This document shows, piece after piece, positions 29,170 to 51,456 of a stretch of DNA of 64,000 bases. Where the stretch lies: contig CM017571.1 of assembly GCA_007844125.1 (NCBI GenBank), positions 3,196,088-3,260,087 on the forward strand, given 5' to 3'. The notes beneath the pieces are model-generated. The model was not told the origin of the DNA. It saw only the letters and a program-made list of their open reading frames with translations, and searched no databases. The stretch's first letter is position 1; each line of letters starts with the position of its first letter. The position numbers and the translations under genes are program-made. Origin of the DNA: Sinonovacula constricta (Eukaryota; Mollusca; Bivalvia; Cardiida; Solecurtidae).

Positions 29170-30550
29170 TAAATACAAACCGTTACCGCATATTTTTACT
29201 TTATGTAAAAATTTTGTTTCACCATGCCCCAACTGTGATAATTAGCCTACTATTAACACTATGACAGACATGTTTGAATCCAGTTTCAGTTACATTTAAG
29301 TGTATATTAGGTATATTTAATGTAATTTGGGGTGTTTCGTCTGCTGATAGGAGATCCCTTATCTAGATCTAAAATATCTGCTTAAGCTTAATCAATTTCG
29401 TCTTAGAGTCGGACATCAAGTTTAGAAAAAAACACTGTACACCTCCTACACACCACTAGACCAAAAATTAGCCCATTTACGCCTCTCTTACCTGGTTTTT
29501 AGTTCCTCGAATGGCCTGCACATATTCCGATTTTTATTCGCCACTGCGTTACGGAAACTCCCATGTTGTTGCATTGTTTCTTTCAAGTTATTTTTCATGT
29601 GTAGTAAACAAGTGGCTTGGCAGTTTTTCAAGTGAATGTCTTGATGTCGTACTTAATTTCGCAATAAATCATCAACGTTGTTATGCTAAATTTAAAAAAG
29701 AATGATAAATTGTCTCAGTACATTAATGCATACATACGAATGTATGGTATAAATCATTTTAACACATATCGTCCGGTTTTAATTGATAGCCAACTAATTA
29801 AGACTTCATCCTCCATATTGTAGTTATTTGTAGTGGTATGTTCGGATAGCGTGCTACCGCCTGCTAGACAATACTCGCCATTACAAACTTGGATGCAAAT
29901 GAAGGTAAATAGTGTTATAGTATTAAGGAAAATGTACCAATTATATTTATCCACAAGATAAATACGGTTAAAATTGCCAAAAATGTATGTAAAATTCGAC
30001 AGGTTAAAACTTACTTGGAACACCTCGGCAATGTCTACCGATCATTGCGAGGAGTGACGGTATATATCATGTTTTGGTTAGAGAAGTCAAATGGAGGATA
30101 CAAATAGGCTACCGACGGAAGATTAAAAAACAAAATGCGCCCATACTAAAGAGGTGGAGGCGAGTGAAGCCACGCTACATCATGGCGATCAGCGGTCAAA
30201 CGCTGATGAAGGCCGAAATGGCAGAAAGTATTTCGGCAAATACCAAGACTTGGGGTGTGTTTTTAACATCGCATATATTTTTGTTGTTGTTATTTTTGTG
30301 TTTAGTGATGCCTAAAGATAGGTTTTACAGACTTCTTTTTAAAATCAAGTTTTGCTGATTTTTTTTAGAAAACACTTTTATTGGTTTTTATTTTAATTGA
30401 ACAGAACACTAGTGGCATGATCCACTATCACTAAGGCTCAATTTGATTGGCTGTCCCGGCAATAGTTCCCTTTGAACACAAGCAGCATACCTGAAAACGT
30501 AAAAAAGGTATCTGGGACTTATTTGTAAACTTGAATCAAATACTTTTATC
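29170..30550. other. Intergenic DNA between satellite and transposons
   Basis: No recognised gene. A frame at 30074-30358 encodes a short basic peptide with a hydrophobic tail, without homology I can name. Confidence 0.4.
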
Positions 30551-31807: not shown

Positions 31808-34800
31808 CTAATAGAAGCTACGCCATTTTTTTCTTTGTTTGTTGTTGTTTTTTGTTTGTTTTTTAATAAGTTTATTAAGAACAGAACAGAACATAGGTTA
31901 TAAGCATAGAACATACATGTTCATAACCACAAACAATGAACATAATATTATTAAAAAGGACAAATAAAACAAGAAAATAATCAACTTAACATGATATAAT
32001 AAAACAATTAAAAATAATAGGAAGTTTAAAAATACACGATGACAGCTTGATGGTCAGGCATCACAAAGGTGTGAAAACATGATCACCAATAGTTTTTATT
32101 TGCAAAGACTATGTGAAAGTGCTGCAAGGACTTTGGCCACAATCAGTTTTTAAAGATATTGTTGACAATTAAACATTTTAAGCAAAGACGATAAAGCCTT
32201 TGTATACAAAAGTGACTTAACATGCTTTTATAAATGCTTCTTTGTAAATGTAATATATAATTATATATTTTCTTTTTAACATGGTACTATTTTATAATGC
32301 AGAAGCACAAATCGCCAAAATTGGTTTATAGTATAGAGTCACAGTGTAGAGCAGTCGAAACACCTCGGATAATTCACGAATCATCTCTCGGATGTATGTA
32401 GGTAGTCAGACCAACTCGGCCATTTCCCTAAATGGAACTACTTTTGTGATAGACAAAGATAGCAGCTCGGATGACAGCTCACTACAGTACGATGCCCGTA
32501 AAACCTCAATTTGTGGCGGCTTCAAATTTAAATCATCCAATTTTAATTTACGGAGCGCAGCAGACATGAAGTTGTCAAACGATGGCATTGTTTATGTTTT
32601 GTGCGAACGACATTTTAAGCATTTTCTTCTTCCGACTTCCGGCGAACAAAACGATTGTGATTTCAGTAAGTATTACTGCACCAGATAAATCCGAGGGATG
32701 ATTGTTCCGATGACGGAATTACTCGAGGAGTTCAGATTGAATGTAGACGTAACTAAAATCTAAGGATGTCACCGTGTGTGTATGTAATTTTATAAGTCTT
32801 CAAGTCTAGGAATAATGAATGTTGATTGCTGCGCCAGTGTATACATAAAGAATGTATGTGCATTTTAAATATCGCACGACCTTAAAGAGAAGTGGGCACA
32901 GTTTTAAATTGGTACATGTCACATAGTTTTATTGTGGCAATATCAAGCCAGTAAGCATATTTAATAAGACAGACATACGTATACACACGACGTAAATTAT
33001 TGCATGCGCAGTTCTTATATATAAAAGGGTGTTAAATAAAAACGGCTAAAATGGTTGCGACGTTTTTGATTCTCTCAACCATAAGACATCACAATATTGT
33101 GTTGAATATCATGTACACAGATAATCTATTGATCAGAGGATATAATTTATGCTATTATTCAAAGTAGAGCAACAACAAAATGATCAAATTGTGACCAACG
33201 AACTTTAAAGAGCGATGCAAGTAGTCAAATCATAGTCCCCCGCACGTCATTGTGTCAATCGAACCACCTCGGATAATTCATGAACCATCTCTTTGATGTA
33301 TGTAGGAAGTCGGATCACCTAGGCCATTTCCATAAATGGGACCTAATTTGTGACAGACGCCAAAACAAAGATGGCACCTCGATGACAGCTCACTTTAGCA
33401 CGATGCCAGTTAAACTTCAATTTGTAGCTGCTTCAAATTTTAAATCATCCAATTTTAATCTACAGAGCGCAGCAAGCAAAACAGCTGTCAAACAACGCCA
33501 TTGTTTATGTTTTGTGCGAACTACATTTTAGGCATATTCTTCCGACATCCGGCGAACAAAACGATCGTGATTTCTTTAAGTATCATTGCACCAGATACAT
33601 CCGAGGGATGATTGTCCCGAGGATGGAATTACCCGAGGGGTTCCGATTGCTCATTGTGTGTATGCGATTCATAGTCGGGACAAGAACGTGTCTTTTAGGT
33701 AATATATTCTGCGTGACCAGCGGTGTGTCACTGGTTCTGATGTCTAAGGTCTTCTTCTAGCATTTTCATGAAGCTAAAAGTCGCCATAATAAATATATGG
33801 TTACTGGTGCGACTTTCAGATAAGAAAAAAGCAGAATATAAATATTATTTTGAGCATTGTATTTGCTCAATAAACAAGAATTTTAAGTCTAAATGTAAAT
33901 AGCGTGGTCTCATGACACCAGTTATAGAGGGAAAACTTACGAGAGACCACTATCTCCAGATTGGATGCTGATCCTGTCAACAAAGATGGGTGGTTTCCCA
34001 CCTGATGTATATTTCAGACTAACTGACTGAAGATTGCCCACGACATCTTTCGTCAATGCAACTGTCCGGTATAACTCCCCAGGTATGAAATGGCGATCTG
34101 ATCTAGAAACAAAATGCAATCATAAGAAAAGTTTAAAAAAAATTAAGATACGCTTATGACATACTGGCACTTCTAGGTAAACTTTGCGGAGGAAGTTCTA
34201 AGGTAAATGTGTGGGTAGAACCACCGAATGCCATCTTGAAAACCTTCCTTCATATGAATGATAGATAAAATAAAAAGTGCGAAACACATGAAACAAAGCA
34301 ACAACAATAACCAAATCATGATACGATCATTCGCCGAGCATATATAATAAAAAAAACAACAACAAAAAAAAAAAAACAAACACCGGCAAACAATTATATC
34401 AAATTATTGCGTTTTCCTTTTAAATCGACATTATAAACAATATATCTATGATGACTGTGATAATGAAGTTTGACTACCTTGTCAGGTTCATCCATTCGGT
34501 TTCTCCCCATGCACTGTCCAGCATTATTTTGAGCTGTCCATTCTCTGTTTTGTTGCCACCAATCGTCACATTTACACCATAATGATGACCTATACACAAA
34601 CACAAATAATTTTAAACTCGTTCTTTACAGTCGCTTATAAATCTTTATCGACAGCCCACATTCTGGGTAGAACCAGTACGCAGATATTTTAAGTGCGTCC
34701 TGATAGTAAAATGCAGGTCAAAATATATATCTTCGTATGACCCCCATTAAGGGGGAGGTGGGGGGGGGGGTAATTGGCATAACGATACACAATTATAAAG

Positions 34801-36956
34801 ACACTACAAGAAAATACATGTACACGGATGTGAGATAGCGAAGGCGCCACAGAGCGCATTACACACGATGGCTATTATGGGAATTGAATACCCTCCTACA
34901 GCGTCGATTCATTACATTAATATTAATTTTGAGAGCAATGAACCGTAACACTGATTGGAACTAGACTTTACTGTCAACATTGATGTTTGCAACATCTGCA
35001 ATTAAAAGACGCATTGTTAACATCGGCTTACTCGCTGTCTTGTGTTAAGCAGATCTCACCAAACAACCGCGAATTATTATTAATTCCCGTTTCCTTTTAT
35101 AATTGCAAGCTACCCTTTATTGCAACGCCGTTAAAAACGGAATACTCGGCTCTTTTCTCTGAAAAAAGGGTCTCAGAGAACAATTGGAGCGTCCCGTTAT
35201 TGACTGTACATTATGTCCCCATTAACATGCATTTAATAAGAGGCATTTATTTTCTACATTTTACACATAATTTACCATAAAATGTGGCCAATTTTAACCA
35301 AGTGACCAAAGGACCCATTTACTTTGATATGATCTTGCTCTGCCACATGAGGTCATTTGACTAATGAACGAATAATATAATTGCTAAAATAATGCATTGA
35401 CCACATATTTATAAAAAATAAAAAAGATAGCAGTGCAGCCGAACAGTTCTCTGTAGTTTGGCATTAGAATACATGTTTGGAAGCTTTATTATTAAACTCC
35501 CTTTTGCCGTAAGCATATACATATATTATTGTACATGTCGAATTAACCATGGGCTATACTTGATCGTATATTAGTTTTCTAGGTACTGTAAACTTATTAA
35601 TTGTCTCTCCAAAATTTAATCATTAAACAAAGCAAAATTGTTTGTCTTAGAAGAAAAACCAAAAGGTGACGGAGTAAAGTATGAATAGCGGACTTTTAGA
35701 CAGTCGATACTTTTCTCTCCTTCATTTTTATATACATCGCAGCGGCACGCTAGATGGCAATTATAACGACGGCCAGCTTTTTTTTTCGGAGAATGAAAGT
35801 CCTAGAAAAAAATGTCTGCGGGATGAGCTGTTTATATTAAGTCATGCCCCCACGACCGGGACTCGAACCCATGCTCTGAGAGACTGAGTCAGAATGAAAG
35901 AAATGTCAGTTGCTGATTTTTTCACTCAGCTTCGTACACTGACTGAGGGCCTGGGAAAGCGTTTCCGAAGAGATCAAGGTTTGAAACGTTCAACAAGCAA
36001 AATGTACTGTGGTCTTCTTGGAGCAATTGATAGATATCTAGTAACTATATATGTTGTTGTGGACCTATGTGAAACATAAAACGCGATTGGCATTCCCATT
36101 GTACTTTATTTTGTTCATGACGATTTTGGCATACAGAAATTCATTTGGGAATGGTCGAATCCTGCCAGACTGACAAAACAAAGTTATAATTAATGATTCA
36201 ATATAAAACACGGGCCACAATACTGAAGTTTGGTGTACCTCTGCCTTCTTGTGCAGGACCTGTTAACTTCAACATCTATATCGCATGTATTATCACTGTA
36301 AATTTAAAAATGTATCTTCTTGTAACAAAAAAATGCGATGTTTAAAGAGTCAAGTTAAACGAACAATATTTACAAACAAGTGAAACGGTATCATCTCTCA
36401 GGAGATCTCTTAATGTGGACACGTGCTAACCTCTAATAATTTACGTCCCGGTTTGAAAAGGTAAATCTTTAAAAACAGTTTTCTCGAAATAGACTTCATT
36501 TTACTTATTTTTTTTTAAAAAAAGAGAAAATATTCCCTTTTCATTTTGAAAATTTGAAACGGTTACAAATGTTGACAATCTGACGTCTGGTCTCATACCC
36601 CAGTTTGGTCTCATACTCGAAATCGGGGAAATTATCCCTTACCACAAAATGGCGTTCCCATTCGGGTGTTGAGGTAGAAACTTCCTCGTGCATCATAGTC
36701 AATAGCACTGTTACCCATAATGCCACACCCAGTGTCGCCACAAGAGAGGCATTCTCCTTTCTGGAATGCTGCCTGCACAAGACAAGTCGAAAGGTTGCAA
36801 GTATGAACACATTAAAATTTAAAAAAAAAACATCACATAAAACAGGAAAAACTACACTGGATTTAATACACCTTAAACGCAATGTTACCAACGATAGAAT
36901 TAACAGGACATTTGACCATTTCACTTAATTCTGTAAAGAACGAAACCTGTGCTTGT

Positions 36957-37034
<78 letters not shown>

Positions 37035-40000
37035 CTGATGTTTTACGAAGACCGCTCCCATTTCATAAACATCTCTTATACCAATACTTGGACTTTGCCA
37101 ACTAGCCGATATCAGTGTAACGTAAAAAATAGTAAGCACAAAATGTTTTTGCATATTATAGTACTACAACTTGTCCTCCTGCAACTTTGTCATCATTGAG
37201 TATTTTGAAATATTCAAGATGGCTGCCAAGATGAACCCCAAAATCAGGAAAACCTATATTGGGGTCTTTAACAATGCTGTATAGTCTCCAACAAAGTAAA
37301 CAATATTTAACAGAATGCAGATAAAAATGTATATATAAATGCAAAAAAGTCGAAAAACTGACCGCCCAAACCCCCAAATTACTTCTAAAAAAATTAATCA
37401 TTTTTGAAATAAAAAAAAATATTTAAGTTTCCCATAACTCAGTTTTGGAAAAAACATGTATAAAAAAAAACTTTTCTACAATATTTCACAAATTAAAATT
37501 GATAAATATAGCTTTTATAATATAAAAAGATATTTAACTAAGTACAAAAACGTTGTGATTACTTCCCTTTGTTGTAACTTTACCATTACATTAAACTCTG
37601 TTTTGTTTCATCAATTAACATGCTGTCCCCGGCCACAAATTGAACTATCTTTTAAAAAGGCAACAACTCGTCTGATCGTGACGAAAATAGCAATGTCACA
37701 GGTTCCTATGAAACCGAAGTCTACTTTTGATCTGCTTTTGTCTCCACCAAAGACCTAAAGTAGATCATATTGACCACACCATACTATAGTTTGAGACGAT
37801 AGTTTGCGCATCCAAGTAAACATCAAAACACAAATATATAAACCTGTTATATATTCCAGGGCTTACTTAGTTTAGATTTCGATCCAAAGTAGGCTACAAC
37901 ATGCATTAAAGGTGGTATCCGAAATTGTGGACTAATGTTTTCTCAAACAACCTAATTAATTGTTGTTATCCGAAAAGGGCCCCGAGATGTAATATATTTA
38001 TATACTTTAGCGTATTTTTGCCCTGTTTGCAGTTTCCAGTAAAGGGCGTGCTACCCACATTCACGACTTTTTAATGTTATATTGAATATCATATGACTAG
38101 TTGTGTCTATGAACATGATTGGAATTTTCAAACTCTTCAATTAATTACTATACAACTTAGTATATAATATTACAATACAAACAACCCCTTATTGATCTGC
38201 TGTATTATATATTATACATAAATTGTATTTAATTAAGTGAGGTGTGATATATATATATATATATTGCCAAAAGGGTATGTGGCTTTCCGGCACCTTATAA
38301 AAATAGGTAAATATCAAAATTGATACAAACTGTAAAAATCGGTCCACGGACGAACATTTTGGCCAGACTGTCAACCTAAATCCACGAAAGCCCGCCACCC
38401 AAATTCACTGTGGGATATAATGATAATATAGAATGAAAAGAAAGCAAAGAAACTCTTACATAGCTAGCGCAAGGATAAGCTGTGAAGAGGCAGTCGTCCA
38501 AAGGATCTATAGATTCTATGAACACATCATGTGATCGGCTATGACTGCACGAGACGGAGTCAAATATATCGGTAACCGACCCCAAAACTGTAAAATGCAA
38601 AGCAGCACACATTTTTACACAGAAATGTAAATATTACAAATAAACTCATCGTCACGTGAAGATTATGACACGGAAGACGCAAATTCGACCAGGTTTTAAA
38701 ACGGGCCACAGTCTATAAAAATTGAACAAGTTAAAGCGACATTGTCATAGCCGGTCAAGTTTTCAGATTTAGCTTTTGCTAAAATTGCTTGTTAGCAGCA
38801 ATGTATGGATTAAAATATTACATTTGTTCACAAACATGCATATGCATGCTGTCTTTGGAAGATGGGTGGAAGAAGAAGGTAAAATGTTTCAATGGTTTCA
38901 GTGTTTTTAGGCCATTTAATGCTAAACCACCTTGTTCGTGTATAGCAGTTCCGAACTACGCATTGCTTGTGTATAGCAGCGCCGAACTACGCATTGCTCG
39001 TGTATAGCAGCGCCGAACTACGCATTGCTCGTGTATAGCAGCTCCGAACTACGCATTGCCCGTGTATAGCAGCTCCGAACTACGCATTGTTCGTGTATAG
39101 CTGCTCCGAACTACGCATTGCTCGTGTATAGCAGCTCTAAACTATACATTGCTCGTGTATAGCAGCTCTGAACTACACATTGTTCGTGTATAGCAGCTCC
39201 GAACTACGCATTGCCCGTGTATAGCAGCTCCGAACTACGCATTGTTCGTGTATAGCTGCTCCGAACTACGCATTGCTCGTGTATAGCAGCTCTAAACTAT
39301 ACATTGCTCGTGTATAGCAGCTCTGAACTACACATTGTTCGTGTATAGCAGCTCTGAACTACGCATTGTTCGTGTATAGCAGCTCTAAACTACACATTGT
39401 TCGTGTATAGCAGCTCTGAACTACACATTGTTCGTGTATAGCAGCTCCGAACTACGCATTGCTCGTGTATAGCAGCTCTAAACTATACATTGTTCGTGTA
39501 TAGCAGCTCTGAACTACACATTGTTCGTGTATAGCAGCTCCGAACTACGCATTGTTCGTGTATAGCAGCTCCGAACTACGCATTGTTCGTGTATAGCAGC
39601 TCCGAACTACGCATTGCTCGTGTATAGCAGCTCTAAACTATACATTGTTCGTGTATAGCAGCTCTGAACTACACATTATTCGTGTATAGCAGCTCTGAAC
39701 TACACATTGTTCGTGTATAGCAGCTCCGAACTACGCATTGTTCGTGTATAGCTGCTCCGAACTACGCATTGCTCGTGTATAGCAGCTCTGAACTACACAT
39801 TGTTCGTGTATAGCAGCTCTGAACTACGCATTGTTCGTGTATAGCAGCTCTGAACTACACATTGTTCGTGTATAGCAGCTCTGAACTACACATTGTTCGT
39901 GTATAGCTGCTCCGAACTACGCATTGCTCGTGTATAGCAGCTCTGAACTACACATTGTTCGTGTATAGCAGCTCTGAACTACGCATTGCTCGTGTATAGC

Positions 40001-43000
40001 AGCTCTGAACTACACATTGCTCGTGTATAGCAGCTCTGAACTATACATTGCTCGTGTATAGCAGCTCTAAACTATACATTGCTCGTGTATAGCAGCTCTG
40101 AACTACACATTGCTCGTGTATAGCAGCTCCGAACTACGCATTGTTCGTGTATAGCTGCTCCGAACTACGCATTGCTCGTGTATAGCAGCTCTAAACTATA
40201 CATTGCTCGTGTATAGCAGCTCTGAACTACACATTGTTCGTGTATAGCAGCTCCGAACTACGCATTGTTCGTGTATAGCTGCTCCGAACTACGCATTGCT
40301 CGTGTATAGCAGCTCTAAACTATACATTGCTCGTGTATAGCAGCTCTGAACTACACATTGTTCGTGTATAGCCGCTCCGAACTACGCATTGCTTGTGTAT
40401 AGCAGCGCCGAACTACGCATGGTTCGTGTATAGCAGCTCCGATCTACGCATGTGATGCTAGATGTATACGTAAATGACGACGCGCTAGAGCTCGACGTCT
40501 ATATAAAAAGAGCTCACTACAATTGTACGTGAGGGAAGCTGAGTCCATTTTGCGATCGTTCAGAAGCCCTATGCTACGGATCCTAATTCGGTAAACGGCG
40601 GTCTATGGTTTGAAGCTTGACTGTCTTTAAGCAACAAATCAAAACCACAGTCAGATTGTGTTTGTTTTAAGTAATGCCTTAAATATACATTGTATATAAG
40701 GCACCACCCGAATCTACATATAGGCCTAAGTACTAAGTCCATTTGCAGACGTTAAAGATACTCGCATTAGATATATGCATAACAAAAAGATATGTTCCAA
40801 TTAACATTGCTTCTTTAAACAACATGGAAAACTTTTAGGTATTTATTGTGATATTGTTTTTGTTTTTTGTCGGTGCAATGTAACAAATAACAAAAACAAA
40901 CAAACAGAAAACAGTAAAATAAAAAAAAAGTGAACAAAGAAACATCTGAGTGTGTCCATTTGCAAGGAATCTTAACAATGGCTTTAAATTTAAGCTCAAA
41001 ATTATATAAGCAAAGCATGCTGGGATCCAATTCTCACTTAAGCACAGCTATGTAACTAAACTGAGCCATTGAAGAAAAGGGGACCAGACCTCACTTTCTC
41101 CTTTGAGAATTTGCTCAAACTCAAATACTGACATCAAGAATACATATTACTGGGTTATAATTATTCAATTCTAATTTGTTATACTCCACAAAACTTGCAA
41201 GGTTAAAGTTTTGCTATTTTAAAGTGATGTATTAAACATATTACATAAGTAAATACTAGGAAATCAAATTTTGAGCAAAATCTCAACTGAGAACGGATAT
41301 TGCACGTGGGGCCAGGTCACATTTACATCCTCCATGGTATACAATCGTACATAAGATTCGCATGGGTACGCTGTGAAGAGACACTCGTCTTGTAGGTGGA
41401 TGGACTCAATGAAGACTTCATGAGACCGCCCGTGGCTACAAGCCACGTCGTCAAACATGCTCTGGAAAGTGTCCGCAACTAAAAGGATCACACCCATACG
41501 TGTGTATATTAGTCAGGTTTCAACATGACGAATATTAAAAAAGAAAACTACAACGTCCAACATATAGAAATCGGATTCAAACAGACTGCATATTGCCACT
41601 GAAATGATAATGGCCATATATAAATCGAATTGCGCAATATTATTGATCGCAAGCCTCGGCCATCTTTCCAAGATATAGTGGGTCTATGTTAATTGCTCTG
41701 TATGGCAGACCAAGCATTAGACAATCCACATAACCCACATATTATCCGTAGTTATAAAATCCAATGGTGCAACAGAACGAAAGGCCAGCATCAAACCTTA
41801 AAGGTGGTATCCGACAGCTTGCCTATATTTAACACATGCAACATCCTACCCCGGTTCTAGAGAATGTTTGCAATATTGCTGCATTAACCTATACCTTAGT
41901 TTAAATAAAAGCTGCTTATAATATTAGCTTAATTGGAAGACAGTACAACTCGTGAAAGATATTGCATAAAATGTCTATTAATGTCTTATAAACTATTTCC
42001 AAATCTATAAATAAGTACGATGGGGATGTAGTTAAAAATAGCCATCGACGTCAGAGCTGATTACCAGGATGTAAGTGGTCACGTGGTTTTCTTAGTTTTA
42101 AAATAGCCAACTGTGCAGCGTGGCTCGGAAAGAAAATAAGTGTTTGCAATGAAGAGTGAGGAGTTGTGCTTCGCTGTTCACACAGACCTAGGGCACCAAT
42201 ACACAGCATTTTGCGGGACATTTTCAGGGAGCAATGACTTATTTTTATTTGAGAAAAAATATTTGGTCTAAACTGTTGGATACAACCTTTAAATAAAAAC
42301 TATTGTACCGCAGGTCGACGCTCTCCAACGGTCACCCATCCGTACACCAGCCACGGTAACCGTTAATTAACCGCGTAACTTTGGACGCCTCTTAAACCAA
42401 GTCGATAAAAAGTTAATCCAGCAGCAAGGCTGGTTTGAAGTGCTTATATTTCTACCTTTGTGGTTGTTACAATATATTTTATTTAACCTACATGGTTCAT
42501 ATTCAAATTTAACCATTTTTAATTTTAACAAACAAAACATCATCTGTCTAACATAACAAGGTTAAAGGTGATTAACGGCCTCATAGAGGCCCATCTGAAA
42601 TATCACAAAAAGAATACAAGAAATACATTGATGCAAAACATCAAAGGGCGTCCAATTTATGTTTTAAAACGTCATTTGACGCACGACAAGAACGGACATT
42701 AGACTAATACTGTCTTGAAGGTGGTATCCAACAGTTTTGATCAAAATTTATTTTCTCAAATTACCAAATAATTCATTGTTACCTGAAAAGTTCACGCAAA
42801 ATGCTGTTCATTGATGTCCTAGATCTGTATGAACAGTCAAGCATAAATCAACTTTCGTCATCGCAAACAGATATTTCCTATTCGAGCCACACTGCAGAGA
42901 TAGCTTTTTTGAAAACCACGTGACCACTTACTTTAGGGAATACGTTATAAAGTCATCCAGGTAATCAGGTCTGACGTCGATATCTATTTTTAACGGAGAC

Positions 43001-43078: not shown

Positions 43079-46000
43079 CTCGATTAGTTTTGCAAACAAA
43101 TCAGTTACTGTTCAAAAAGTATTTATTAAGACTAAAGTATACATTTATGCGCAAATAATACCCAAATTTCCCAAAGCAGTGGTTCAATATTGTTAAATGT
43201 ATTTGATATAGGCAAACTGTCGGATACCACCTTTAAGGTGAACTGAAACATATTCGAACAATTGGTCTTTATAAGTACTTAATATATGCCGCAACATTTG
43301 CTTTGCGTATTGTCTACAAGTATCAACCATTCCATTTAAAATTATCACATCTGTTATGAAACTCGTTCATTTAAGAAATAGTGAACGAATAACACTATTA
43401 CAGAAGTGCTAGCAGGTAAGAATAAAACCGGTTGAACCCGAGTGGATCGAAGTTGAAAAAATCGGTACGTTATATACGAGCTATGGTATACATGTAGTAC
43501 GAATCTGTAACGCCATAGAAACACCCGCAACGCCTCGGTCATTTCTATGAAAAAGACTTGTCCGAATACCGCTGAGTAGTTACGAATGACCGACAACTAC
43601 AATAACAGCATAATCACGAATTTCAAATGCATTCCATAAAGGGCGCAGCGCTTCAATGCGGACGGCAATTACTATTGTATTTCGGTTCAAGGAATACGAT
43701 ATAATAAAAATAAGTCTATGAACTTATACGAGTATCAATGCGCTTCAAAATTAGTGGTGCAAATCTCTAGCCACCGTTTGAGAGCCTGGTGCCTGGTTAC
43801 CGTAAGGGTAACTGTTGGTAATTGATAAGTATTGTATTTATTTTACATTGAAGATCAGCGCGCAAATAAAACAAAAAGGCCAATCTCATTAAAATCACAT
43901 CCTAACTTTCGCTTCATTACTTTCCGCTGGTTAGGATCTGATAACATCCCGATAAAGGTCGCCTCGAAGTGACCTTTAAGTTATAAATATTAATGAGCCG
44001 ATGACGTCAAACTTGACCAATCAGAAACCTCGTTACACCGCGGTATCGTTGTCAGACAGCGACAAACACTTCACTACCTTTTTCGTATTCTGAAGGCGTT
44101 CTTCATTGATTCTAAGTTTTTGTTTGAACTGTTTTGAGTGTGTTTGCTCCCACTACCCGTTATCAGAACCTGGAGATATGACATCCCGCAAAAACAGCAC
44201 CGATCAACTAACGAATGTAATTTCTTTGACGTTTGTTTTTCTGGATCGCAAATGTCAATGGGGGCTGCAGTCTTGAAAATGTGACACACCTTTAATTGGA
44301 ATACCTTGGACATTGCCGCTCAATATGAATTTCCGTAAATAGCCGTAATCTGGCGAATATTCATGAAGTTATACCCCAACATTTTGCAGCCGTCGATTTC
44401 ATTGGCTAATCAAAGATCAAATTGAGGTGACACCTAATGCGATGTCATCAGATCCTAACCAGCGGAAAGTAATGAAGCGAAAGTTAGGATGTGATTTTAA
44501 TGAGATTGCAAAAAGGCCTGACGTAGCGTTTTTGTCTGTTAAATTCTATGATTTATCATGCTGCTTGTGTCAATTAATGCTTAAATGTACATGTTTTCAT
44601 CTTTACCTTATAATGTATGATCGATACTTTCCGACCTCTTCATTATGGTATACTGTTATTTTGTAAAATTGCCCAATAAATAACTTTAGACCCCATTTGC
44701 TCACTTGAAACCCCAAATATTACATATGAGTTAGATTATGTATACGTGCTTTAGAAAGACTGTTCGATTTAAATGAAAATAACAACTGGAGAGAAGATAA
44801 CATAAGGCACATCTTCGAAAAGAATTGATAAAAATATAAGCATCTTCACCATATCAATAATCTAGTGTAAAACACGCATGATTAGTTTAAAAAAACTTAC
44901 GAAATCGCTTGCCATTAAGCAACGATCCTACAATAGAAGCTATAGCTTTTCCTGAGCTGCTACAATCTGGCTGGTCATCGCCGCCATTAAGAAAGAAATC
45001 CACGTGGCCGCAAGGGTCCCTCATTCCAAACCCTCCTGCAAAAAAAGCATGTAGCAAACCTCCATGTAAATACAAATATCAACCAATGTTGGACACATCG
45101 CCTCACGGAACTGTCATACCAAACCCTCGTGTAAAAACAAACATATATCAACCATTGTTGGACACATCGCCTCAATGAACCGTTGTACCAAACCCTCGTG
45201 TAAATAAAGACAAATATCAACCAATGTTAGACACATCGCCTCACGGATTTGTTGTACCAAACCTTCGTGTAAATACAAACATATATCAACCAATGTTGGA
45301 CACATCGTCTCACGGATTTGTTGTACCAAACCCTTGTGTAAATATAGACATATATCAACCAATGTTAGACACATCGCCTCACGGATTTGTTGTACCAAAC
45401 CTTCGTGTAAATACAAACATATATCAACCAATGTTGGACACATCGTCTCACGGATTTGTTGTACCAAACCCTTGTGTAAATATAGACATATATCAACCAA
45501 TGTTAGACACATCGCCTCACGGATCCGTTATACCAAACCCTCGTGTAAATACAAACATACATCAGCCAATGTTTGACACATCGCCTCACGGATCCGGTAT
45601 ACCAATGCGTCAAATTTTAACATTAAAATTGCTATCTGTTTAAACCGGAAGATCATTATATTGTGTAATTCATATATACATGAAATGCAGATATATGAAT
45701 GAACCATGCCCTAGACGAATATCACTCATTGACTGGAGGAAAGAGTCTAAACGGAGAGCGAACTGCTTTTAGACCGAATGTTCCACTGACGCTACATTAT
45801 CTACTAGGCCGAGATATTTGCGATATTCCGCACGGGGCCACGCTGCTTTCTGTGTCCCTGAACCAGGGTATGTAATGTTATTTGTATCATCTCAGTATCG
45901 CAGTATAAAGCTACCGCATTCTTTCGGAGAGGAATGGAGCACTTGGGATTCATATCACATTGGTATAATACGTAGACTGATGTTAAATTCATACTCTATT

Positions 46001-49000
46001 TTGGTCAAATACGGTAGCATATACATGTATGAACATTTATTTTAGACCTAGATTAAGTTAAAATACAAAATCATATAGAACTTATTGAATGTTTAATAAA
46101 CTGGTTTTTATCATCGGATGTTAGTGAATCTGACGTAATTTTTGTCCCAATGTTGCACATTTGCTTTACAATGGAATAATTTTACGTTCACACCTGAAAT
46201 CACTCACAATGTCAAACCAAACAGCGCATCTGTGCGTTTTGTTTGTATTGCACCGAGCGACGAATTGTACACATACATACAAACGTACTTGAAATACTTG
46301 CAATATGTAATCTATCTGCTCGCCGATAATACAGATACGACAACAATAACATTTTCAATGACATTGACCATCACGTGACACTGTCACAACACGGTACGAG
46401 ACTTTCTCAACATCATTTATCTGAAATAAAGCATTTGTGGACGCATCGCTTACTCTGTAAAAATAGTTTTTAAATAGATGTTGATAATATGGTTTTAAAC
46501 ATGTACTAATTCCTTACGAATACACATTTTATTTGGTTACTGGGTGCAAAATATGCTGTCTACCTTTTGGAGTTTGAACATCGCACTTTTTGTTATCCTG
46601 ATCGTACCTTTGCTTATAGGTGCGCCGTTTGAATGTATGACATCAACAAATTCGGCGTCATTTTTGTCCAGTCTGACCGACAGAGGTAGGCCCTGAAATC
46701 CTGGTTCAGCTGGATCCATTCCTGAGACGGAAGAAACAAATGGCATCAATATGGCCCCAAATCAACCTGCCCCTAACAAAGAATCAATTGTCTGTTCTGA
46801 ATATTGCTACATATTACTTACAACATTTATATGATCATTGATGTTTGTAGGATGAACATTAAAAATGTATTTTTGACTTGGGATAGGTTTAACCGATCCA
46901 GCACGTGCTTACCTGAAATTCGACCAAGAGTGTTGTTGCTTTCTTTTATGATCGATCCGACATAGCCAGATATATGAGATCCAAGACTGTGCCCAATTAA
47001 ATGCATGTCTTTATAGTCGACGCCCAGCTTGTTTACGTTGCCTAGCAACATCGACAGTTGCATAGCAACTAGTCTCGTGTTGGCAACGGCTTGGTCATAA
47101 TTAGGCGCGGCTGCTCCGGGTCCCCATACGGTAATGAAGACGTTGACATCGCTCTGAAGTAAAATACGTTTTAAAGGTGGCATCCAAAATGTTTTCTATA
47201 TCAAATACATGTAACGATATCTTACCACTGCTTTGGGGAATATGGCCATAATTTCAGCATAAACTCACTTTAAGTAAAGACGATCTTCAACACTACACAT
47301 ATTAGTATACAGTACCAATCGGGAAAAGTCACACATAATGTTAATTCTTACCAAATATATAAATATACAAACAATTTAGGACAGCGCCGGATTCTAAACT
47401 TGTTTGCTTCTTGAACGAGATTAGTATTATAAATAAGTTATAAATTTTTAAACTGTTTATTTACCAATCGTTTTACTTTTTTAAACCGTTTTATGTGTTG
47501 ACCTGTTTTCAATTATAATTTATTTTTCAACCTGATTTTTTATATATTTTTCTATATTTTACTTGCGTAGTTTGGTTTTAACCTGATTATGCTCTATTCA
47601 CATTTAACTTTGTATTCGGCGCCGTATGACCTGTTAAGTGTCGGTGTGCCGTAAAACCCAAATAAATAAATAAATAAATAAATAAAATATATAGAAAAGC
47701 ACTATAGAGATTACTGCTAAAATTGATATCAATGTCACAGCGGACGATGTAATGTTATCCCAAAACTAATCTAAAAATAGCTATCTCTGCAACGTGGCTC
47801 GGAGGGTAAGTGATGGTCGATAAAACTAAAACAATAGGCAGCACCTAAGTATCTATTGATATATAAAATGTCATTAGAATTCGACGGTTAGGAATTGTGA
47901 CTGACGTGTTTCATTTCTCACGTATGTTTAGTTTCTCAGTTATACGAAGTCGCAGTTGTTCTGTGAGACCCTTGTCAGAGAAAAGAAACGACTTCGCCGT
48001 TTTCTTTTTTTAACAGTGTAACTTGCAGCAATACATCGTCGGATACCCACGGTTGATTCTATTACGTTACTCTCCATTCATCACCCGTGGGCAAATTGCT
48101 ACTCATTTCGTCGCTTTGTTTACTATGAAATGCCGCAATCCGATTGGTTCGCTGAGACCATCCAGCAAATCTGCCAACCAATCAAGTTTACGCTTTCATA
48201 CCACTTCGATAGCATTGTCGTAAGTTTATTTACGCACAAATTACAAGCAACGTCACTGTCTTCATGGGCAAGGATACCGATTTCGTTTAAAACCGACGTG
48301 TATTTCAATACTTGCTGGGGTGCCCAAAGATCTGTAAGAACATTTGTCGCGGATCGCTGACAGACATATTTTACACTTGCGATGCGCTGTACCGGTCGCC
48401 ATGTTTACGTTTTCATGTCACCGTATTGATCTTCCGATTGAAGAGTATTTAATTTTGTAACCTATCATCTGATTGGATAATGTCTGTTCTTTTCTATTCA
48501 AACAAAACGACGAAATGAGTAGCAATTTGACTACCTACATACATCCGAAAGATGATTCGTGAATTATCAGAGGTGTTCCGATTGAGCCAAGTTCCCATTA
48601 GAGTTGCGGTTTGTTACTCTCAAGTATTAATATATAATAAATCGATCTTATAAGAAAGTGTTTAGTCTCTAATATAGCCATCTACAATTAAAAGCAAATG
48701 TTTTCTACGGCGCCTTGGATGTCTCATATCCATGTTTCTTCTTGTTTCTATCCCTTATACAGTTGATTATGAAAAAAAAAAGTAGGCCTAACTCTTGTCT
48801 TATTGGAAAATGTATTAGAATGAACATCAACTGTTTTTAAAAATGAACACGGTCCTTTTCAATAATTATGTGGCATTGATCAATAAACAAATGAAAATGA
48901 ATAACCTTTTTGAGAAATGCGTCCTTCATGAGATAAAGCCATTCTGTTTCAATAGAGTTGGAGAACCCATGAATTATTACTTTCACAGGGAGGGCGGGGT

Positions 49001-51456
49001 CAAAACTTGTGTCGCCAAGCGACGAGCTGTTCCGCCAATCGACAATCACCGTCTTGTTGGCGCCCCTTGCAGGAAAAGTAGGTGTGAACAGGAGAAATTG
49101 TGTTCCTGTTAAAAAAGGTGAGACTAAATGAAATTGTTGAAAGTTTACACGAATATATTTATAGATTCTCATTATACTTAAAAGGCCATTATTACAATTG
49201 TTATTACAATTATTATAACAATTATTATAATTCAACATGTGAACTAAAAGTAATAAATGTGAAGGGATCTGAAGAGAAAGCTGGTATTAAAAAGGTGGTA
49301 CTCAACAGTTTGTCCATTAAATTAATGTAAAAATACCTTACCACTGATTTTGGGGATTTGGGCATAATTTTTGCATACTGGAGCGTGTCATACTTTAGTA
49401 TAAGTTAAACGGGTTTGAACACTGTCTGCCTTGTTAGCCTGTACAAATCGTGATAAAAACACTCTAAAAGTTCAATCATTACAAATCTATAAATATGTAA
49501 GTACGATGGTGAATTCTGCTAAAAATAGAAACCGACGTCAAAGCGGATTGCCTTGATGACGATAAAATGTAGTCTAAAAAGTGCATAGTCACGTGGTGTT
49601 CTAGTTAAAAGACACTGCAGCGTGGCTCAGATATGAAATTCGTACCTGTTTGCTATGAGGAATGGGGGTTTATTTTTCATTGTTAACACTGATGTATGGT
49701 GGCATCAGTGAGCAGCATTTTGCAATACCTTTTCATGTAACAATGACGTACTTAATTATTTGAGAGAAAAATAGTTTGGTCCAAACTGTAGGATACCACC
49801 TTTAAGATCAATAAGCTACTGAAAAAAACAAACAAAACAACTACAATACTGATTTTAGCTACGACGATAATGCTGACGACAACAACACAGACGACAATAA
49901 CGGAAACAACATTACAGATGCTGCTTATGCAGATGAATATGATTATGATGACGATAAAGAAGAAGGAGAAGGAGAAGGAGAAGAAGAAGGAGAAGGAGAA
50001 GAAGAAGAAGGAGAAAAAGAAGGAGAAGAAGGAGAAGAAGAAGGAGAAGAAGGAGAAGAAGAAGAAGGAGAAGAAGGAGAAGAAGAAGAAGAAGAAGAAG
50101 GAGAAGGAAAAGAAGGAGAAGAAAAAGAAGAAAAAGAAGGAGAAGAAGGAGAAGAAGAAGAAGGAGAAGAAGAAGAAGAAGAAGGAAAAGAAGAAGAAGA
50201 AGAAGGAGAAGGAAAAGAAGAGGAAGAAGACGGGGATGTTGATTATCATGACGATCTACACACCTACATCTTCCGGTGATTTTGGTAATGTATTATGAGC
50301 ATTGTTGAATGGAGGATTGTCATTAAAACAGAAGACGTCATGGTAGCACACCTCTTTGGCATATGCTGTTCTAGTACCAGTTCCTAGAAAAAAAAAGCAA
50401 ACAACAAAAATAAAGACGAGATATCGGTCTCTCATTTCTTACTTGGAGACATTACCTGATAATTGTTTCGGCGACATTTCTGTTCCGGCGGATCAAATGC
50501 TTTCGATATGATCAAAAAGCAAATGGGATCAGAATTAGGCATGTTTAGGTATAATGAAAATAAAACATGACTTATCTAAAAATGTGTGTAATTTGTTTGT
50601 GAAAAGAGACGTTTATTTTCACATTTTCATCAAGTAAGTCTGTGTAAGTGTTAGTGAGGAAAATAGTGACATTTTCTCACCTTAGTGCCATAGACCATGA
50701 AACACTATGCAATACCTATATAAAACCGAAAAACATTCATAAAAATTCAGACTAGTCCATCTTTAAGGTGGTATTCGGCATTTTGCCTATATCAAATACC
50801 ACAATAACCACACCTGTTTGGGAGTCTGGCCAATAGTATGCCAAAACTTTTCAGTCTAGATGAAGACGGAATTGAACACTGCATCTATTGTAAAATAATA
50901 CAAATCGTGAAAATATCGCTCTAAATTTTTATTCTTCCCAAATCTATAAATAAGCACGATGGGTGAGGGGTGGGGATTTCTTCTAAAAATAGATGCCGAC
51001 GTCATAGTGAATAAGCCCGAAGAAGCTATAACGTGATATCAAAAGAAAGTGGTCACGAGTTTTTCTTTGATTAAAAAATAGCTATCTCTGTAGAGTGGCT
51101 CAGATAGGAAATACACGTTGGCAATGACGTGTGGGGATTTATGCTTCACTGTTCACAGAGATTCGGGGCATCTATGAACAGCATTTTGCAGGGCTTTTCA
51201 GGTAACAATGACGTATATGGCTATTCGAGAAAAGTGTGTCTTTAAATCGTGTATGGTTTGTTTAGAGAAAGCGGCTATTTCAAAATTCAGTGACCCGATT
51301 TGTTATAATTGAAAAAAATTAAAAAGAATATAGCATTTACAAATCAAACATGGTTATCCTACAAGTAAATTAATGACGTAGATATATAATATCTTAAATA
51401 ATCCAACAATGTCACTTACCAAATACGCTTAAGCCAAAAAGAATTGCGATTATCAT
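31741..51456 (-). CDS. Secreted pancreatic-lipase-family triacylglycerol lipase
   Basis: Probable secreted lipase hydrolysing lipid esters, likely digestive. Exons on the - strand: 51456-51420, 50383-50264, 49105-48906, 47153-46913, 46721-46608, 45035-44901, then either 41478-41351 (7a) or 38587-38460 (7b), 36772-36643, 34589-34478, 34102-33941 and 31807-31741. With one exon 7 they give 1446 nt, 481 residues, TGA stop; mammalian pancreatic lipases have about 465. A signal peptide ending AYA is followed by KEVCY, the mature start of pancreatic lipase. Catalytic residues: Ser175 in GHSLGSH, Asp202 in GMDPAEP, His298 in CSH. Cys262 and Cys296 bracket a 33-residue lid, longer than the ~23 of pancreatic lipase. 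Residues ~370-481 form a PLAT domain. Odd points: WGPG replaces the usual VDW after the strand following the HGF oxyanion loop, and that disulphide pair is missing. Orthology to a single vertebrate member cannot be set. Confidence 0.93.
32355..32738 (-). mobile_element. TIR element carrying a conserved 60-residue frame, copy 1
   Basis: Ends are ~50-bp imperfect inverted repeats beginning TCAATCGGAAC(A/T)CCTCGG. The - strand frame 32588-32406 encodes [20 protein letters not shown] then [20 protein letters not shown]. Other copies: 33255-33649, 53125-53499, 59431-59787 and an end fragment at 48531-48588. It lies in the last lipase intron. Confidence 0.75.
33255..33649 (-). mobile_element. TIR element with conserved frame, copy 2
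   Basis: Same element and orientation as 32355-32738, about 500 bp away and about as long. Its frame is interrupted. Ends are CAATCGAACCACCTCGGATA and GGGGTTCCGATTG. Confidence 0.72.
33941..34102 (-). CDS. Lipase exon 10 (PLAT domain, second part)
   Basis: Acceptor TTTTGTTTCTAG, donor GTAAGT, phase 2 at both ends. Residues 406-459 include [20 protein letters not shown] and [14 protein letters not shown], aligning with the strands of pancreatic lipase that read DLQMVKFIW and KIIVET. Confidence 0.9.
34478..34589 (-). CDS. Lipase exon 9 (PLAT domain, first part)
   Basis: Acceptor TTGTGTATAG, donor GTAGTC, phases 1 in and 2 out. Residues 369-405 read [20 protein letters not shown] then [13 protein letters not shown], the opening strands of a PLAT (lipoxygenase-like beta-sandwich) domain. 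Confidence 0.88.
34610..36640. other. Lipase intron 8, no other gene recognised
   Basis: Contains a G-run (34756-34769) and a degenerate tRNA-like segment around 35830-35890, whose - strand holds a B-box-like GGGTTCGAGTCCC. No complete tRNA fold could be assembled. Confidence 0.4.
36643..36772 (-). CDS. Lipase exon 8 (end of catalytic domain)
   Basis: Acceptor GTCTTGTGCAG, donor GTAAGG, phases 0 in and 1 out, residues 326-368. [18 protein letters not shown] matches the family pattern NKCFPCPSGGCPQMGHYA, followed by [15 protein letters not shown] leading into the PLAT domain. A longer open frame over this segment is a shadow. Confidence 0.92.
36957..37034. repeat. (AAT)n microsatellite
   Basis: Twenty-six uninterrupted TAA/ATA triplets in the lipase intron upstream of exon 8. 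Likely length-variable. Confidence 0.97.
38460..38587 (-). CDS. Lipase exon 7b (alternative lid and catalytic His)
   Basis: Acceptor TGCATTTTACAG, donor GTAAGA, 128 nt, same phases as 7a. Encodes [20 protein letters not shown], then [20 protein letters not shown] and ASY. By hand alignment 27 of 43 residues match 7a. Only 4 of the 13 lid residues are shared, but 23 of the 30 from the lid cysteine onward. Both splice sites and the Cys-Ser-His are intact, so it does not look like a decaying copy. Confidence 0.9.
38932..40452. repeat. 31-bp minisatellite, about 49 units
   Basis: Unit GTGTATAGCAGCTCTGAACT then ACACATTGTTC, 31 bp. Variants CTCCGAACTACGCATTG, CTCTAAACTATACATTG and GCTGCTCC recur in ordered blocks of several units, so multi-unit duplication took place. 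It fills over half of the interval between alternative exons 7a and 7b and is richer in G, C and CpG than its surroundings. Confidence 0.95.
40495..40530 (+). promoter_or_regulatory. TATA-box-like element downstream of the minisatellite
   Basis: CTATATAAAAAG at 40499-40510 lies about 47 bp after the end of the 31-bp array, on the strand opposite to the lipase, in a CpG-containing stretch (GACGACGCGC, GCTCGACGTC). No open frame of note follows. It could be a fragment of a retroelement promoter or chance. Confidence 0.25.
41351..41478 (-). CDS. Lipase exon 7a (lid second half and catalytic His)
   Basis: Acceptor GATCCTTTTAG, donor GTACGA, phases 1 in and 0 out, 128 nt. Encodes [20 protein letters not shown], then [20 protein letters not shown] and ESY. 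Cys296 closes the lid and His298 is the predicted catalytic histidine, equivalent to CNHLRSY in pancreatic lipase. Exon 7b is an alternative of identical length and phase; using both shifts the frame. Confidence 0.92.
41799..42293 (+). mobile_element. Inverted-repeat transposon family X
   Basis: Starts TTAAAGGTGGTATCCGACAG and ends AAACTGTTGGATACAACCTTTA. Oriented like the 31045 copy and opposite to its neighbour at 42715-43235. It lies 320 bp upstream, in lipase sense, of alternative exon 7a. Confidence 0.8.
42715..43235 (-). mobile_element. Inverted-repeat transposon family X with a long T-run
   Basis: Starts GAAGGTGGTATCCAACAGTT and ends AAACTGTCGGATACCACCTTTA. Contains an uninterrupted run of nearly 40 T at 43040-43078. 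Together with the 41799 copy it forms an inverted pair in lipase intron 6. Confidence 0.8.
43881..44508. mobile_element. Mutator-like MITE, long TIR and 9-bp target duplication
   Basis: About 62-bp terminal inverted repeats that I read as identical, starting CAATCTCATTAAAATCACAT and running to GGTTAGGATCTGAT. Both sides carry the 9-bp direct repeat CAAAAAGGC (43872-43880 and 44509-44517). Long TIRs and a 9-bp duplication are the mark of Mutator-like elements. At 628 bp there is no room for a transposase. It lies in lipase intron 6. Confidence 0.88.
44901..45035 (-). CDS. Lipase exon 6 (first half of the lid)
   Basis: Acceptor TTTTTTTGCAG, donor GTAAGT, phase 1 at both ends, residues 238-282. 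[16 protein letters not shown] matches the family GHLDFFPNGG motif. Cys262 opens the lid, and the exon ends SLLNGKRF in the middle of it. A ~70-bp minisatellite upstream copies its first 29 bases. Confidence 0.94.
45040..45610. repeat. Minisatellite of ~70-bp units derived from lipase exon 6
   Basis: About eight units, each with CAACCAATGTTGGACACATC, GCCTCACGGATCCG and ACCAAACCCTCGTGTAAAT. The + strand segment GCC-CA-GG-TCC-T-AT-CCAAACCCTC matches 23 of 29 bases at the 5' end of lipase exon 6, continuing over the splice site (CTGCAAAA in the gene, GTGTAAAT in the units). The array therefore contains copies of the exon start. Confidence 0.88.
46608..46721 (-). CDS. Lipase exon 5 (catalytic aspartate)
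   Basis: Acceptor TCTTCCGTCTCAG, donor GTACGA, phase 1 at both ends, residues 200-237. [11 protein letters not shown] carries the catalytic Asp202. [20 protein letters not shown] follows, as in all pancreatic-type lipases. Confidence 0.95.
46913..47153 (-). CDS. Lipase exon 4 (nucleophile serine)
   Basis: Acceptor TTTTACTTCAG, donor GTAAGC, phases 0 in and 1 out, residues 120-199. Starts [13 protein letters not shown], continues [19 protein letters not shown] and contains [16 protein letters not shown]. Ser175 in GHSLG is the nucleophile. Confidence 0.95.
47172..47900 (+). mobile_element. Inverted-repeat transposon family X, interrupted
   Basis: Left end TTTAAAGGTGGCATCCAAAA just 18 bp upstream of the start of lipase exon 4, with the family body CTTACCACTGCTTTGGGGAA. 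A retroelement 3' tail (47380-47690) splits it, and the right part resumes with CACTATAGAGATTACTGCTA. The far end is eroded. Confidence 0.6.
47380..47690 (+). repeat. 3' end of a non-LTR retrotransposon or related SINE
   Basis: Second copy of 4262-4563: CGGATTCTAAACTTGTTTGC to GTGCCGTAAAACCCA followed by (AATA)n. It is inserted inside the family X element, so it is the younger of the two. Confidence 0.62.
48092..48529. mobile_element. MITE with perfect 22-bp TIRs
   Basis: CAAATTGCTACTCATTTCGT-CG at the left and its exact reverse complement at the right, 438 bp. Internally it has several CCAAT/ATTGG motifs (GATTGGTTCG, CCAACCAATC, TGATTGGATA). A fragment of the 32355-type TIR element starts directly after it. 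The superfamily is unclear. Confidence 0.78.
48906..49105 (-). CDS. Lipase exon 3 (oxyanion-hole region)
   Basis: Acceptor TTTTTTAACAG, donor GTTATT, phases 1 in and 0 out, residues 53-119. Contains [13 protein letters not shown], then [16 protein letters not shown], where HGF is the conserved loop holding the oxyanion-hole residue, and ends AFLKK. Confidence 0.93.
49290..49805 (+). mobile_element. Inverted-repeat transposon family X
   Basis: Starts AAAAGGTGGTACTCAACAGT and ends CCAAACTGTAGGATACCACC. It lies in lipase intron 2, between the exon 3 acceptor and the polypurine tract. Confidence 0.78.
49950..50235. repeat. Polypurine (GAA/GGA)n tract
   Basis: About 285 bp of almost pure A and G on the + strand, made of GAA and GGA triplets. 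In the lipase transcript this is a C/U-only tract starting about 30 nt after the exon 2 donor. Long mirror-like polypurine tracts can form triplex DNA. The long Lys/Glu or Phe/Ser frames across it are artefacts. Confidence 0.95.
50264..50383 (-). CDS. Lipase exon 2 (mature N-terminus)
   Basis: Acceptor TTTTCTAG, phase 1 at both ends. Encodes TGTRTAYA, then [20 protein letters not shown] and [13 protein letters not shown] with the nearby second cysteine matches the N-terminal disulphide of pancreatic lipases. The donor GTGTGT was preferred over GTAGGT four bases upstream because only it keeps phase and yields SPEDVGTQFLLF, as in relatives. Confidence 0.9.
   Translation of the reverse strand, partial: ELVLEQHMPKRCATMTSSVLMTILHSTMLIIHYQNHRKM
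50763..51240 (+). mobile_element. Inverted-repeat transposon family X
   Basis: Starts TTTAAGGTGGTATTCGGCAT. The body has ATAAATAAGCACGATGGG and AATAGATGCCGACGTCATAG. The right end is damaged. It is in lipase intron 1. Confidence 0.72.
51420..51456 (-). CDS. Lipase exon 1 (start codon, signal peptide)
   Basis: ATG at 51456-51454. Encodes [12 protein letters not shown] plus one base, a hydrophobic signal-peptide core, before a strong donor GTAAGT. An upstream ATG 13 bp away is in another frame. The start was chosen because it joins exon 2 in phase and gives a proper signal sequence. Confidence 0.88.

What the first reader, a model, noticed from the sequence alone, without database searches (positions are those of the whole stretch)
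38460..41478. Mutually exclusive exons that would swap the lid and catalytic histidine of a lipase
Seen: two exons, 41351-41478 and 38460-38587, encode homologous versions of the same lipase segment. Both are exactly 128 nt, enter in phase 1, leave in phase 0 and have intact splice sites and the Cys-Ser-His core. Including both puts the second out of frame, with a TAG after about 23 codons; skipping both also breaks the frame. This is the classic layout of mutually exclusive splicing. Known: in pancreatic lipase this segment holds the second half of the lid, which controls substrate choice and interfacial activation, and the catalytic His. The two versions share only 4 of 13 lid residues but 23 of 30 residues after it. 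Inference: one gene makes two lipases with different gates on the same body and PLAT domain. I know of no described lipase that varies its lid this way.
Basis: partly seen in the sequence, partly recalled or inferred. Interest (0 to 1): 0.88.

Follow-up and report, generated by a model that had tools for sequence, protein, structure and literature searches.

The report
Lipase with two swappable lid exons
A lipase gene in a probably bivalve genome carries two intact, diverged copies of the one exon that holds half of the enzyme's lid and its catalytic histidine; fitting both in, or neither, breaks the reading frame, so the gene likely makes two lipases with different gates, which no transcript has yet tested.

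Summary
The anatomy is as described. One 11-exon gene on the - strand (51456-30409) encodes a 486-residue pancreatic-lipase-family enzyme. Only exon 7 was found twice: 7a (41478-41351) and 7b (38587-38460). Both are 128 nt, phase 1 in, phase 0 out, with GT-AG sites. Either alone gives an open 486-residue protein; both, or neither, gives an early stop. The 11 residues of this segment that are invariant in 16 molluscan relatives are kept by both. Synonymous sites are saturated while protein is conserved (pS 0.99, pN 0.24), so both copies have been under purifying selection. The lid halves share 4 of 13 residues but keep a hydrophobic face at the same helix angle. The closest paralog in the same genome has one exon 7 with the same phases, and each of 14 other loci matching this segment matched once, so a duplication in this gene likely made the pair. 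Mutually exclusive splicing is the best reading, probably enforced by frame and mRNA decay. A control tempers the function claim: lid divergence of this size is ordinary between relatives. No transcript of this species was found. My searches of open-licence papers showed no lipase described as swapping its lid this way.

The parts
51420..51456 (-). exon 1, start codon and signal-like peptide MIIAILFGLSVF
   Evidence: start codon chosen by eye, less certain than the rest
50264..50383 (-). exon 2
48906..49105 (-). exon 3
46913..47153 (-). exon 4, nucleophile motif GHSLGS
46608..46721 (-). exon 5, catalytic Asp (GMDPAEP)
44901..45035 (-). exon 6, first half of lid from lid Cys (QPDCSSSGKAIASIVGSLLNGKRF)
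41351..41478 (-). exon 7a: second half of lid (ADTFQSMFDDVA), lid Cys, catalytic His, ...ESIHLQDECLFTAYPCESY
38460..38587 (-). exon 7b: alternative version (LGSVTDIFDSVS), lid Cys, catalytic His, ...ESIDPLDDCLFTAYPCASY
36643..36772 (-). exon 8
34478..34589 (-). exon 9, C-terminal (PLAT-like) domain
33941..34102 (-). exon 10, C-terminal (PLAT-like) domain
30409..30490 (-). exon 11, end of gene, TAG
38588..41350 (-). 2763-nt intron between 7a and 7b, GT-AG, holds a 31-bp minisatellite (38932-40451)

Best explanation
A pancreatic-lipase-family gene carries two intact tandem versions, 7a and 7b, of the exon that encodes the second half of the lid and the catalytic histidine, and these are likely spliced mutually exclusively, which would give two 486-residue lipases that differ only in that segment. 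Shown: the gene model by splice sites and homology, identical length and phase, the frame logic, intact catalytic and lid-cysteine residues in both, and a substitution pattern of purifying selection on both. Inferred: transcripts choose one copy; joining 7a to 7b puts a stop in 7b with four exons still downstream, so such transcripts would be removed by nonsense-mediated decay, leaving 6-7a-8 and 6-7b-8 as the only productive forms. Inferred: both isoforms keep the same amphipathic lid helix but line it with different side chains (Phe and Met in 7a; Val and Ile in 7b) and different charge (-3 against -2), which would tune lid opening or lipid choice rather than switch the enzyme on or off. The pair likely arose by duplication of a single exon 7 after this gene split from its nearest paralog.
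For: Gene model and four splice combinations. PF00151 at 260.7 bits for each isoform; PLRP1/PLRP2 best solved relatives. Exon 7 alone is seen twice; no second lipase match on C17 outside the window or in 10 kb either side. Differences by codon position 11/9/30, pS 0.99, pN 0.24. Neutral-drift simulations: 0 of 3321 accepted draws kept an open frame with 26 or more identical residues; with 25 substitutions on one copy 0.26% of 20000 stay open and keep the 11 invariant residues. 7a and 7b score 67.5 and 67.6 bits against an ortholog profile, within the leave-one-out range 64.2-82.4 of 30 relatives. Hydrophobic moments 0.51 and 0.45, both at phase -59 degrees; such joint alignment in 0.05% of 50000 shuffles of the 9 differing positions (scale and angle chosen by me, after seeing the sequences). 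Closest paralog, C8:37.40 Mb, has one exon 7 with the same phases. 7a and 7b group together, support 92/89.7 in a tree of 17 rows, 90/55 of 34 rows.
Against: No transcript or protein of this species is held: the top relatives are 45-52% identical and the top fragment 41%, so use of either exon is unproven. No ortholog is known to have the pair; clusters at 90% identity would hide such isoforms. Tree support for 7a+7b is not decisive; 7a+paralog is rejected (p 0.021) but 7b+paralog is not (p 0.062). Both exons score in the lower part of the relatives' range. A lid as different as this is ordinary: of 280 relative pairs that, like 7a/7b, share 12 of 14 residues from the Cys on, 81% share 3 or fewer of the 12 lid residues before it. 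No intronic pairing was significant: the best (42350 with 38399, -41.9, above one shuffle at -36.9) is reached by 9 of 100 shuffles. Only frame/NMD is left as the enforcing device, and it does not by itself stop double inclusion.
Confidence: 0.82

Rival explanations
1. One copy is used almost always and the other is a dying or silent exon that is not spliced into stable mRNA.
For: No transcript data; 7a has a weaker-looking donor (GTACGA) and acceptor tract (54% pyrimidine) than 7b (GTAAGA, 63%); the nearest paralog was read and has one exon 7, and 13 further loci matched once.
Against: Both copies are open, have splice sites, score alike against relatives, keep all 11 invariant residues and differ mostly at third positions despite saturated synonymous change.
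Confidence: 0.1
2. The pair acts mainly as a dosage valve: double inclusion or double skipping sends the mRNA to decay, and the two proteins are functionally the same.
For: Both faulty combinations stop early; the amphipathic face is conserved and the lid difference is of ordinary size.
Against: A valve needs no second, selectively kept coding copy; the protein conservation of both copies would be unexplained.
Confidence: 0.06
3. 7b belongs to a separate or partly lost neighbouring lipase gene, or is an assembly artefact.
For: Lipases are a multigene family here (15 loci with this segment, the window's included, by my count).
Against: Exons 2-6 and 8-11 are each matched once in the window; no other lipase match on C17 or in 10 kb flanks; 60% nt identity rules out an uncollapsed haplotype.
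Confidence: 0.02

Closest known systems
ACSL6/ACSL1 fatty-acid Gate-domain exons, human (PMC1543647, passages seen)
   Same: A mutually exclusive exon pair swaps the substrate gate of a lipid enzyme.
   Different: Unrelated enzyme (acyl-CoA synthetase); 26-residue motif; transcripts shown; here the catalytic His is on the swapped exon and no transcript is known.
coq-2 exons 6a/6e in nematodes, annelids and molluscs (PMC7434440, passages seen)
   Same: Alternative exons remodel the core of an enzyme; reported in molluscs too; the paper itself calls such enzyme cases rare.
   Different: Unrelated enzyme; pair seen across phyla and tested by exon deletion in C. elegans; here the pair is known in one gene of one genome.
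Pancreatic lipase / PLRP1 / PLRP2 family (PF00151)
   Same: Family profile, Ser-Asp-His triad, lid between two cysteines, C-terminal PLAT-like region (fold of an ortholog).
   Different: No member is described in my searches as varying its lid by splicing; in vertebrates lids are reported to differ between PLRP2 of different species and PTL (PMC8287333, passages).
PS-PLA1 deltaC splice form (PMC3039968, passages)
   Same: A lipase-family enzyme whose splicing changes substrate use.
   Different: The change described is a truncated C-terminus, not an exchange of lid exons.
OGDH exons 4a/4b (PMC7969005, abstract and one section seen)
   Same: Duplicated alternative exons whose joint length breaks the frame.
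   Different: Exclusion there is tied to distant branch points that restrict intron length; here the intron is 2763 nt.

Membership tests
Mutually exclusive tandem duplicated exons | Adjacent homologous exons | tested here: met
Mutually exclusive tandem duplicated exons | Same phase and compatible length, each alone gives an open frame | tested here: met
Mutually exclusive tandem duplicated exons | Double inclusion or double skipping not productive | tested here: met
   stops at codons 349 and 303 (decay of such mRNA is inferred)
Mutually exclusive tandem duplicated exons | Both copies under selection | tested here: met
   omega not estimable because synonymous sites are saturated
Mutually exclusive tandem duplicated exons | Transcripts hold one or the other, not both | not testable with these tools
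   no RNA data; no same-species protein
MXE enforcement: U2/U12 incompatibility | One intron of the minor class | tested here: not met
   GT-AG, no U12 donor or branch motif by simple patterns
MXE enforcement: donor-branch-point proximity | Very short intervening intron or branch point near the donor | tested here: not met
   intron 2763 nt; AG-free zone before 7b 55 nt
MXE enforcement: competing RNA structure | Selector and docking sequences that pair | tested here: inconclusive
   best intron 6 with intron 7b-8 duplex -41.9 against -36.9 in one shuffle; 9 of 100 dinucleotide shuffles reach it; the other two intron pairs did not exceed their shuffle; the minisatellite was left out; no relatives to test covariation
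Pancreatic lipase family (PF00151) | Family profile above cut-off | tested here: met
   260.7 bits, cut-off 27, both isoforms
Pancreatic lipase family (PF00151) | Ser-Asp-His triad and lid cysteines | tested here: met
   aligned with PLRP1; exon-7 invariant columns kept
Pancreatic lipase family (PF00151) | C-terminal PLAT domain | tested here: inconclusive
   Pfam PLAT not matched; alignment to PLRP1 runs to residue 466; the Mactra ortholog model also matches lipoxygenases over about 119 columns, presumably their PLAT domain (ranges not listed)
Pancreatic lipase family (PF00151) | Lipase activity | not testable with these tools
   no assay

The most novel reading that the evidence does not exclude
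The first lipase that changes its own lid by splicing: one gene supplies two lipases with the same body and different gates, switched by tissue, diet or life stage, giving a natural matched pair for asking what a lid does.
Probability: 0.4. Interest if true: 0.8.

Novelty: new variant of a known kind. Interest (0 to 1): 0.62.

Why it matters
How the lid sets interfacial activation and substrate choice is debated from comparisons of separate enzymes and their structures (PMC8287333, passages). Here evolution appears to have built the swap inside one gene, with everything else held equal and both lids kept under selection. If both isoforms are made, the question becomes directly testable with two natural proteins. 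It would also add a lipase to the short list of enzymes whose active-site region is exchanged by mutually exclusive exons.

Tried and rejected
Separate gene for 7b: rejected. Haplotype or assembly duplicate: rejected. A third copy in the window: none found.

A second exon 7 in the C8 paralog: one search seemed to show one at 37405435-37405668, but reading it showed a chance extension of the exon 8 match into stop-filled intron; rejected.

The idea that the longer spacing between ESI and the next Cys unites 7a and 7b alone: 4 of 115 scorable rows (of 172) have it, and so has the C8 paralog; dropped.

U12 introns, short-intron hindrance, RNA pairing: see the membership test. dN/dS as a number: not possible, dS infinite under Jukes-Cantor.

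Rows dropped before counts: one search used 127 of 174 rows with a scorable Cys-x-His anchor (both isoforms among them; pairs were counted over the others, close relatives included); one search used 115 of 172; the trees used 34 and 17 chosen rows. Searches list the best 120 of 532 and 550 proteins, and one search scored only the 7991 candidates sharing most words. One search scores only its best candidates, so a diverged second exon at another locus could be missed; of the 14 other loci I read only one. P0001 is an out-of-frame translation and carries no evidence. Six open frames of the window gave no Pfam match, two of which overlap lipase exons 9 and 10. Nine paper searches (seven on splicing, 30 on lids, 45 on bivalve lipases) listed no lipase with alternative lid exons by title or abstract start; the three papers were not opened. 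Passages were seen of PMC1543647, PMC7434440, PMC8287333, PMC3039968 and PMC9741552, and the abstract and one section of PMC7969005. Subscription journals are mostly not held.
Full report
What was checked. The window holds one lipase gene on the - strand that reads as complete. Joining eleven exons by their splice sites gives an open frame from ATG (51456) to TAG (30409), 486 residues. The protein matches PF00151 at 260.7 bits with either version of exon 7 and aligns over residues 22-466 with pancreatic lipase-related protein 1 of known structure. By that alignment the nucleophile GHSLGS is on exon 4, the catalytic Asp on exon 5, the first half of the lid, from its cysteine, on exon 6, and the second half of the lid, its closing cysteine and the catalytic His on exon 7.

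The exon pair. Exon 7 is the only exon found twice (exon 1 is too short for the tblastn test). 7a and 7b have the same length (128 nt), the same phases (1 in, 0 out) and GT-AG sites. Each alone gives an open 486-residue protein. Together they stop at codon 349, after 23 codons of 7b, with four exons still downstream; without either the frame stops at codon 303. In two answered searches of the 1.22-Gb own genome the only lipase matches on contig C17 lie in the window, and 10 kb on either side has none.

Selection. 7a and 7b share 26 of 42 residues: 4 of 13 up to and including the lid cysteine, 22 of 29 after it. Their 50 nucleotide differences fall 11/9/30 on the three codon positions; pS is 0.99 and pN 0.24, so synonymous sites are saturated and omega has no numerical value. 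Of 3321 simulated neutral copies with about as many changes, 0 stayed open with as much identity. If only one copy had drifted and taken half of the changes, 0.26% of 20000 draws would have stayed open with the 11 invariant residues intact. Those 11 residues, invariant in 16 molluscan relatives, are kept by both. Against a profile of 30 relatives 7a scores 67.5 and 7b 67.6 bits, in the lower part of the leave-one-out range of 64.2-82.4. Both copies have therefore most likely been held as coding exons for a long time.

Origin. The nearest paralog in the same genome (C8:37.40-37.41 Mb, 34-58% identical by exon) has a single exon 7 of 119 nt with the same phases. By my count, 14 loci outside the window match the exon 7 segment, that paralog included, each once; the counts there are lower bounds. 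7a and 7b group together in trees of 17 rows (92/89.7) and 34 rows (90/55), neither fully decisive. Joining 7a with the paralog is rejected (p 0.021), joining 7b with it is not (p 0.062). The simplest history is one ancestral exon 7, duplicated in this gene after it left the paralog, long enough ago to saturate synonymous sites.

What the swap would do. The lid halves are ADTFQSMFDDVA (7a) and LGSVTDIFDSVS (7b). Read as helices they have hydrophobic moments of 0.51 and 0.45, reached by 0.5% and 1.5% of shuffles, against a family median of 0.32 and 90th percentile of 0.48, and the faces point the same way (-59 degrees both). Shuffling only the nine differing positions reproduces that joint alignment in 0.05% of draws. 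The hydrophobic scale and helix angle were chosen by me and the pattern was sought after seeing the sequences. In the predicted model of the Mactra ortholog the matching segment runs into one helix that ends the lid and carries the catalytic His (residues 337-356), with low confidence in the lid itself (pLDDT 62-73). So both exons seem to keep a working lid helix while changing the side chains on its greasy face and its charge. That fits tuning of opening or lipid choice. It is inference: in a control, 81% of 280 relative pairs that share 12 of 14 residues from the Cys on share 3 or fewer of the 12 lid residues before it, as 7a and 7b do.

How exclusion would be enforced. A passage lists four devices: reading-frame conflict with mRNA decay, U2/U12 incompatibility, RNA structure, and closeness of donor and branch point (PMC7969005). 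Here the frame conflict is present, minor-class introns were not seen, and the intervening intron is 2763 nt. Among intron pairs one duplex, between intron 6 (42350) and a patch 60 nt downstream of 7b (38399), beat a single shuffle, but 9 of 100 dinucleotide shuffles of that patch do as well. Frame plus decay, with trans-acting choice of exon, is the best remaining reading.

What is not known. No transcript or protein of this species was found: the top relatives among about 5.8 billion proteins are 45-52% identical (Mactra, Ruditapes), and among fragments the top hit is 41% identical, with at most 66% over 17% of the query. The species is not identified; a bivalve is inferred from the best hits (Mactra, Ruditapes, Mya, Dreissena, Crassostrea). 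The database clusters at 90% identity, so isoform pairs of this kind in relatives would be hidden.

Place among known things. The kind is known: mutually exclusive tandem duplicated exons, with 236 tandem duplicated exon events annotated in human, about half of them internal mutually exclusive ones (PMC9741552, passages). The closest in function are the fatty-acid gate exons of ACSL6 (PMC1543647) and the core exons of coq-2 (PMC7434440). I saw no lipase whose lid varies this way in nine paper searches, which cover open-licence papers only and of which I saw listings. Verdict: a real exon pair, very likely mutually exclusive, a new variant of a known kind, and worth a simple RNA check.

Noticed in passing
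38932-40451: A 31-bp minisatellite of 49 copies (91% matches) fills over half of the intron between 7a and 7b.
   Followed up: partly
45072-45593: A 69-bp tandem repeat of 7.6 copies ends about 36 bases before the first base of exon 6.
   Followed up: no
43029-42715 and 42292-41996: Two copies of a dispersed repeat in opposite orientation in intron 6 (72% alike); related stretches occur at several other places in the window.
   Followed up: no
43881-43977 and 44412-44508: An inverted pair of 97 bp at 88% identity in intron 6, mobile-element-like.
   Followed up: no
21538-29158: A very long satellite of a short AT-rich unit downstream of the gene, open in several frames for hundreds of codons.
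   Followed up: no
G000:C8 3.17/8.77 Mb, 15.06/15.74 Mb; C3 66.12 Mb / C8 30.05 Mb: Several further lipase loci of this genome come as far-apart pairs with almost equal scores and match limits, as if recently duplicated; their identity was not measured.
   Followed up: no
L031 (G000:C8:37402500-37412400): The nearest paralog has the same exon 6/7 phases with one exon 7, a useful single-exon reference for the pair.
   Followed up: yes
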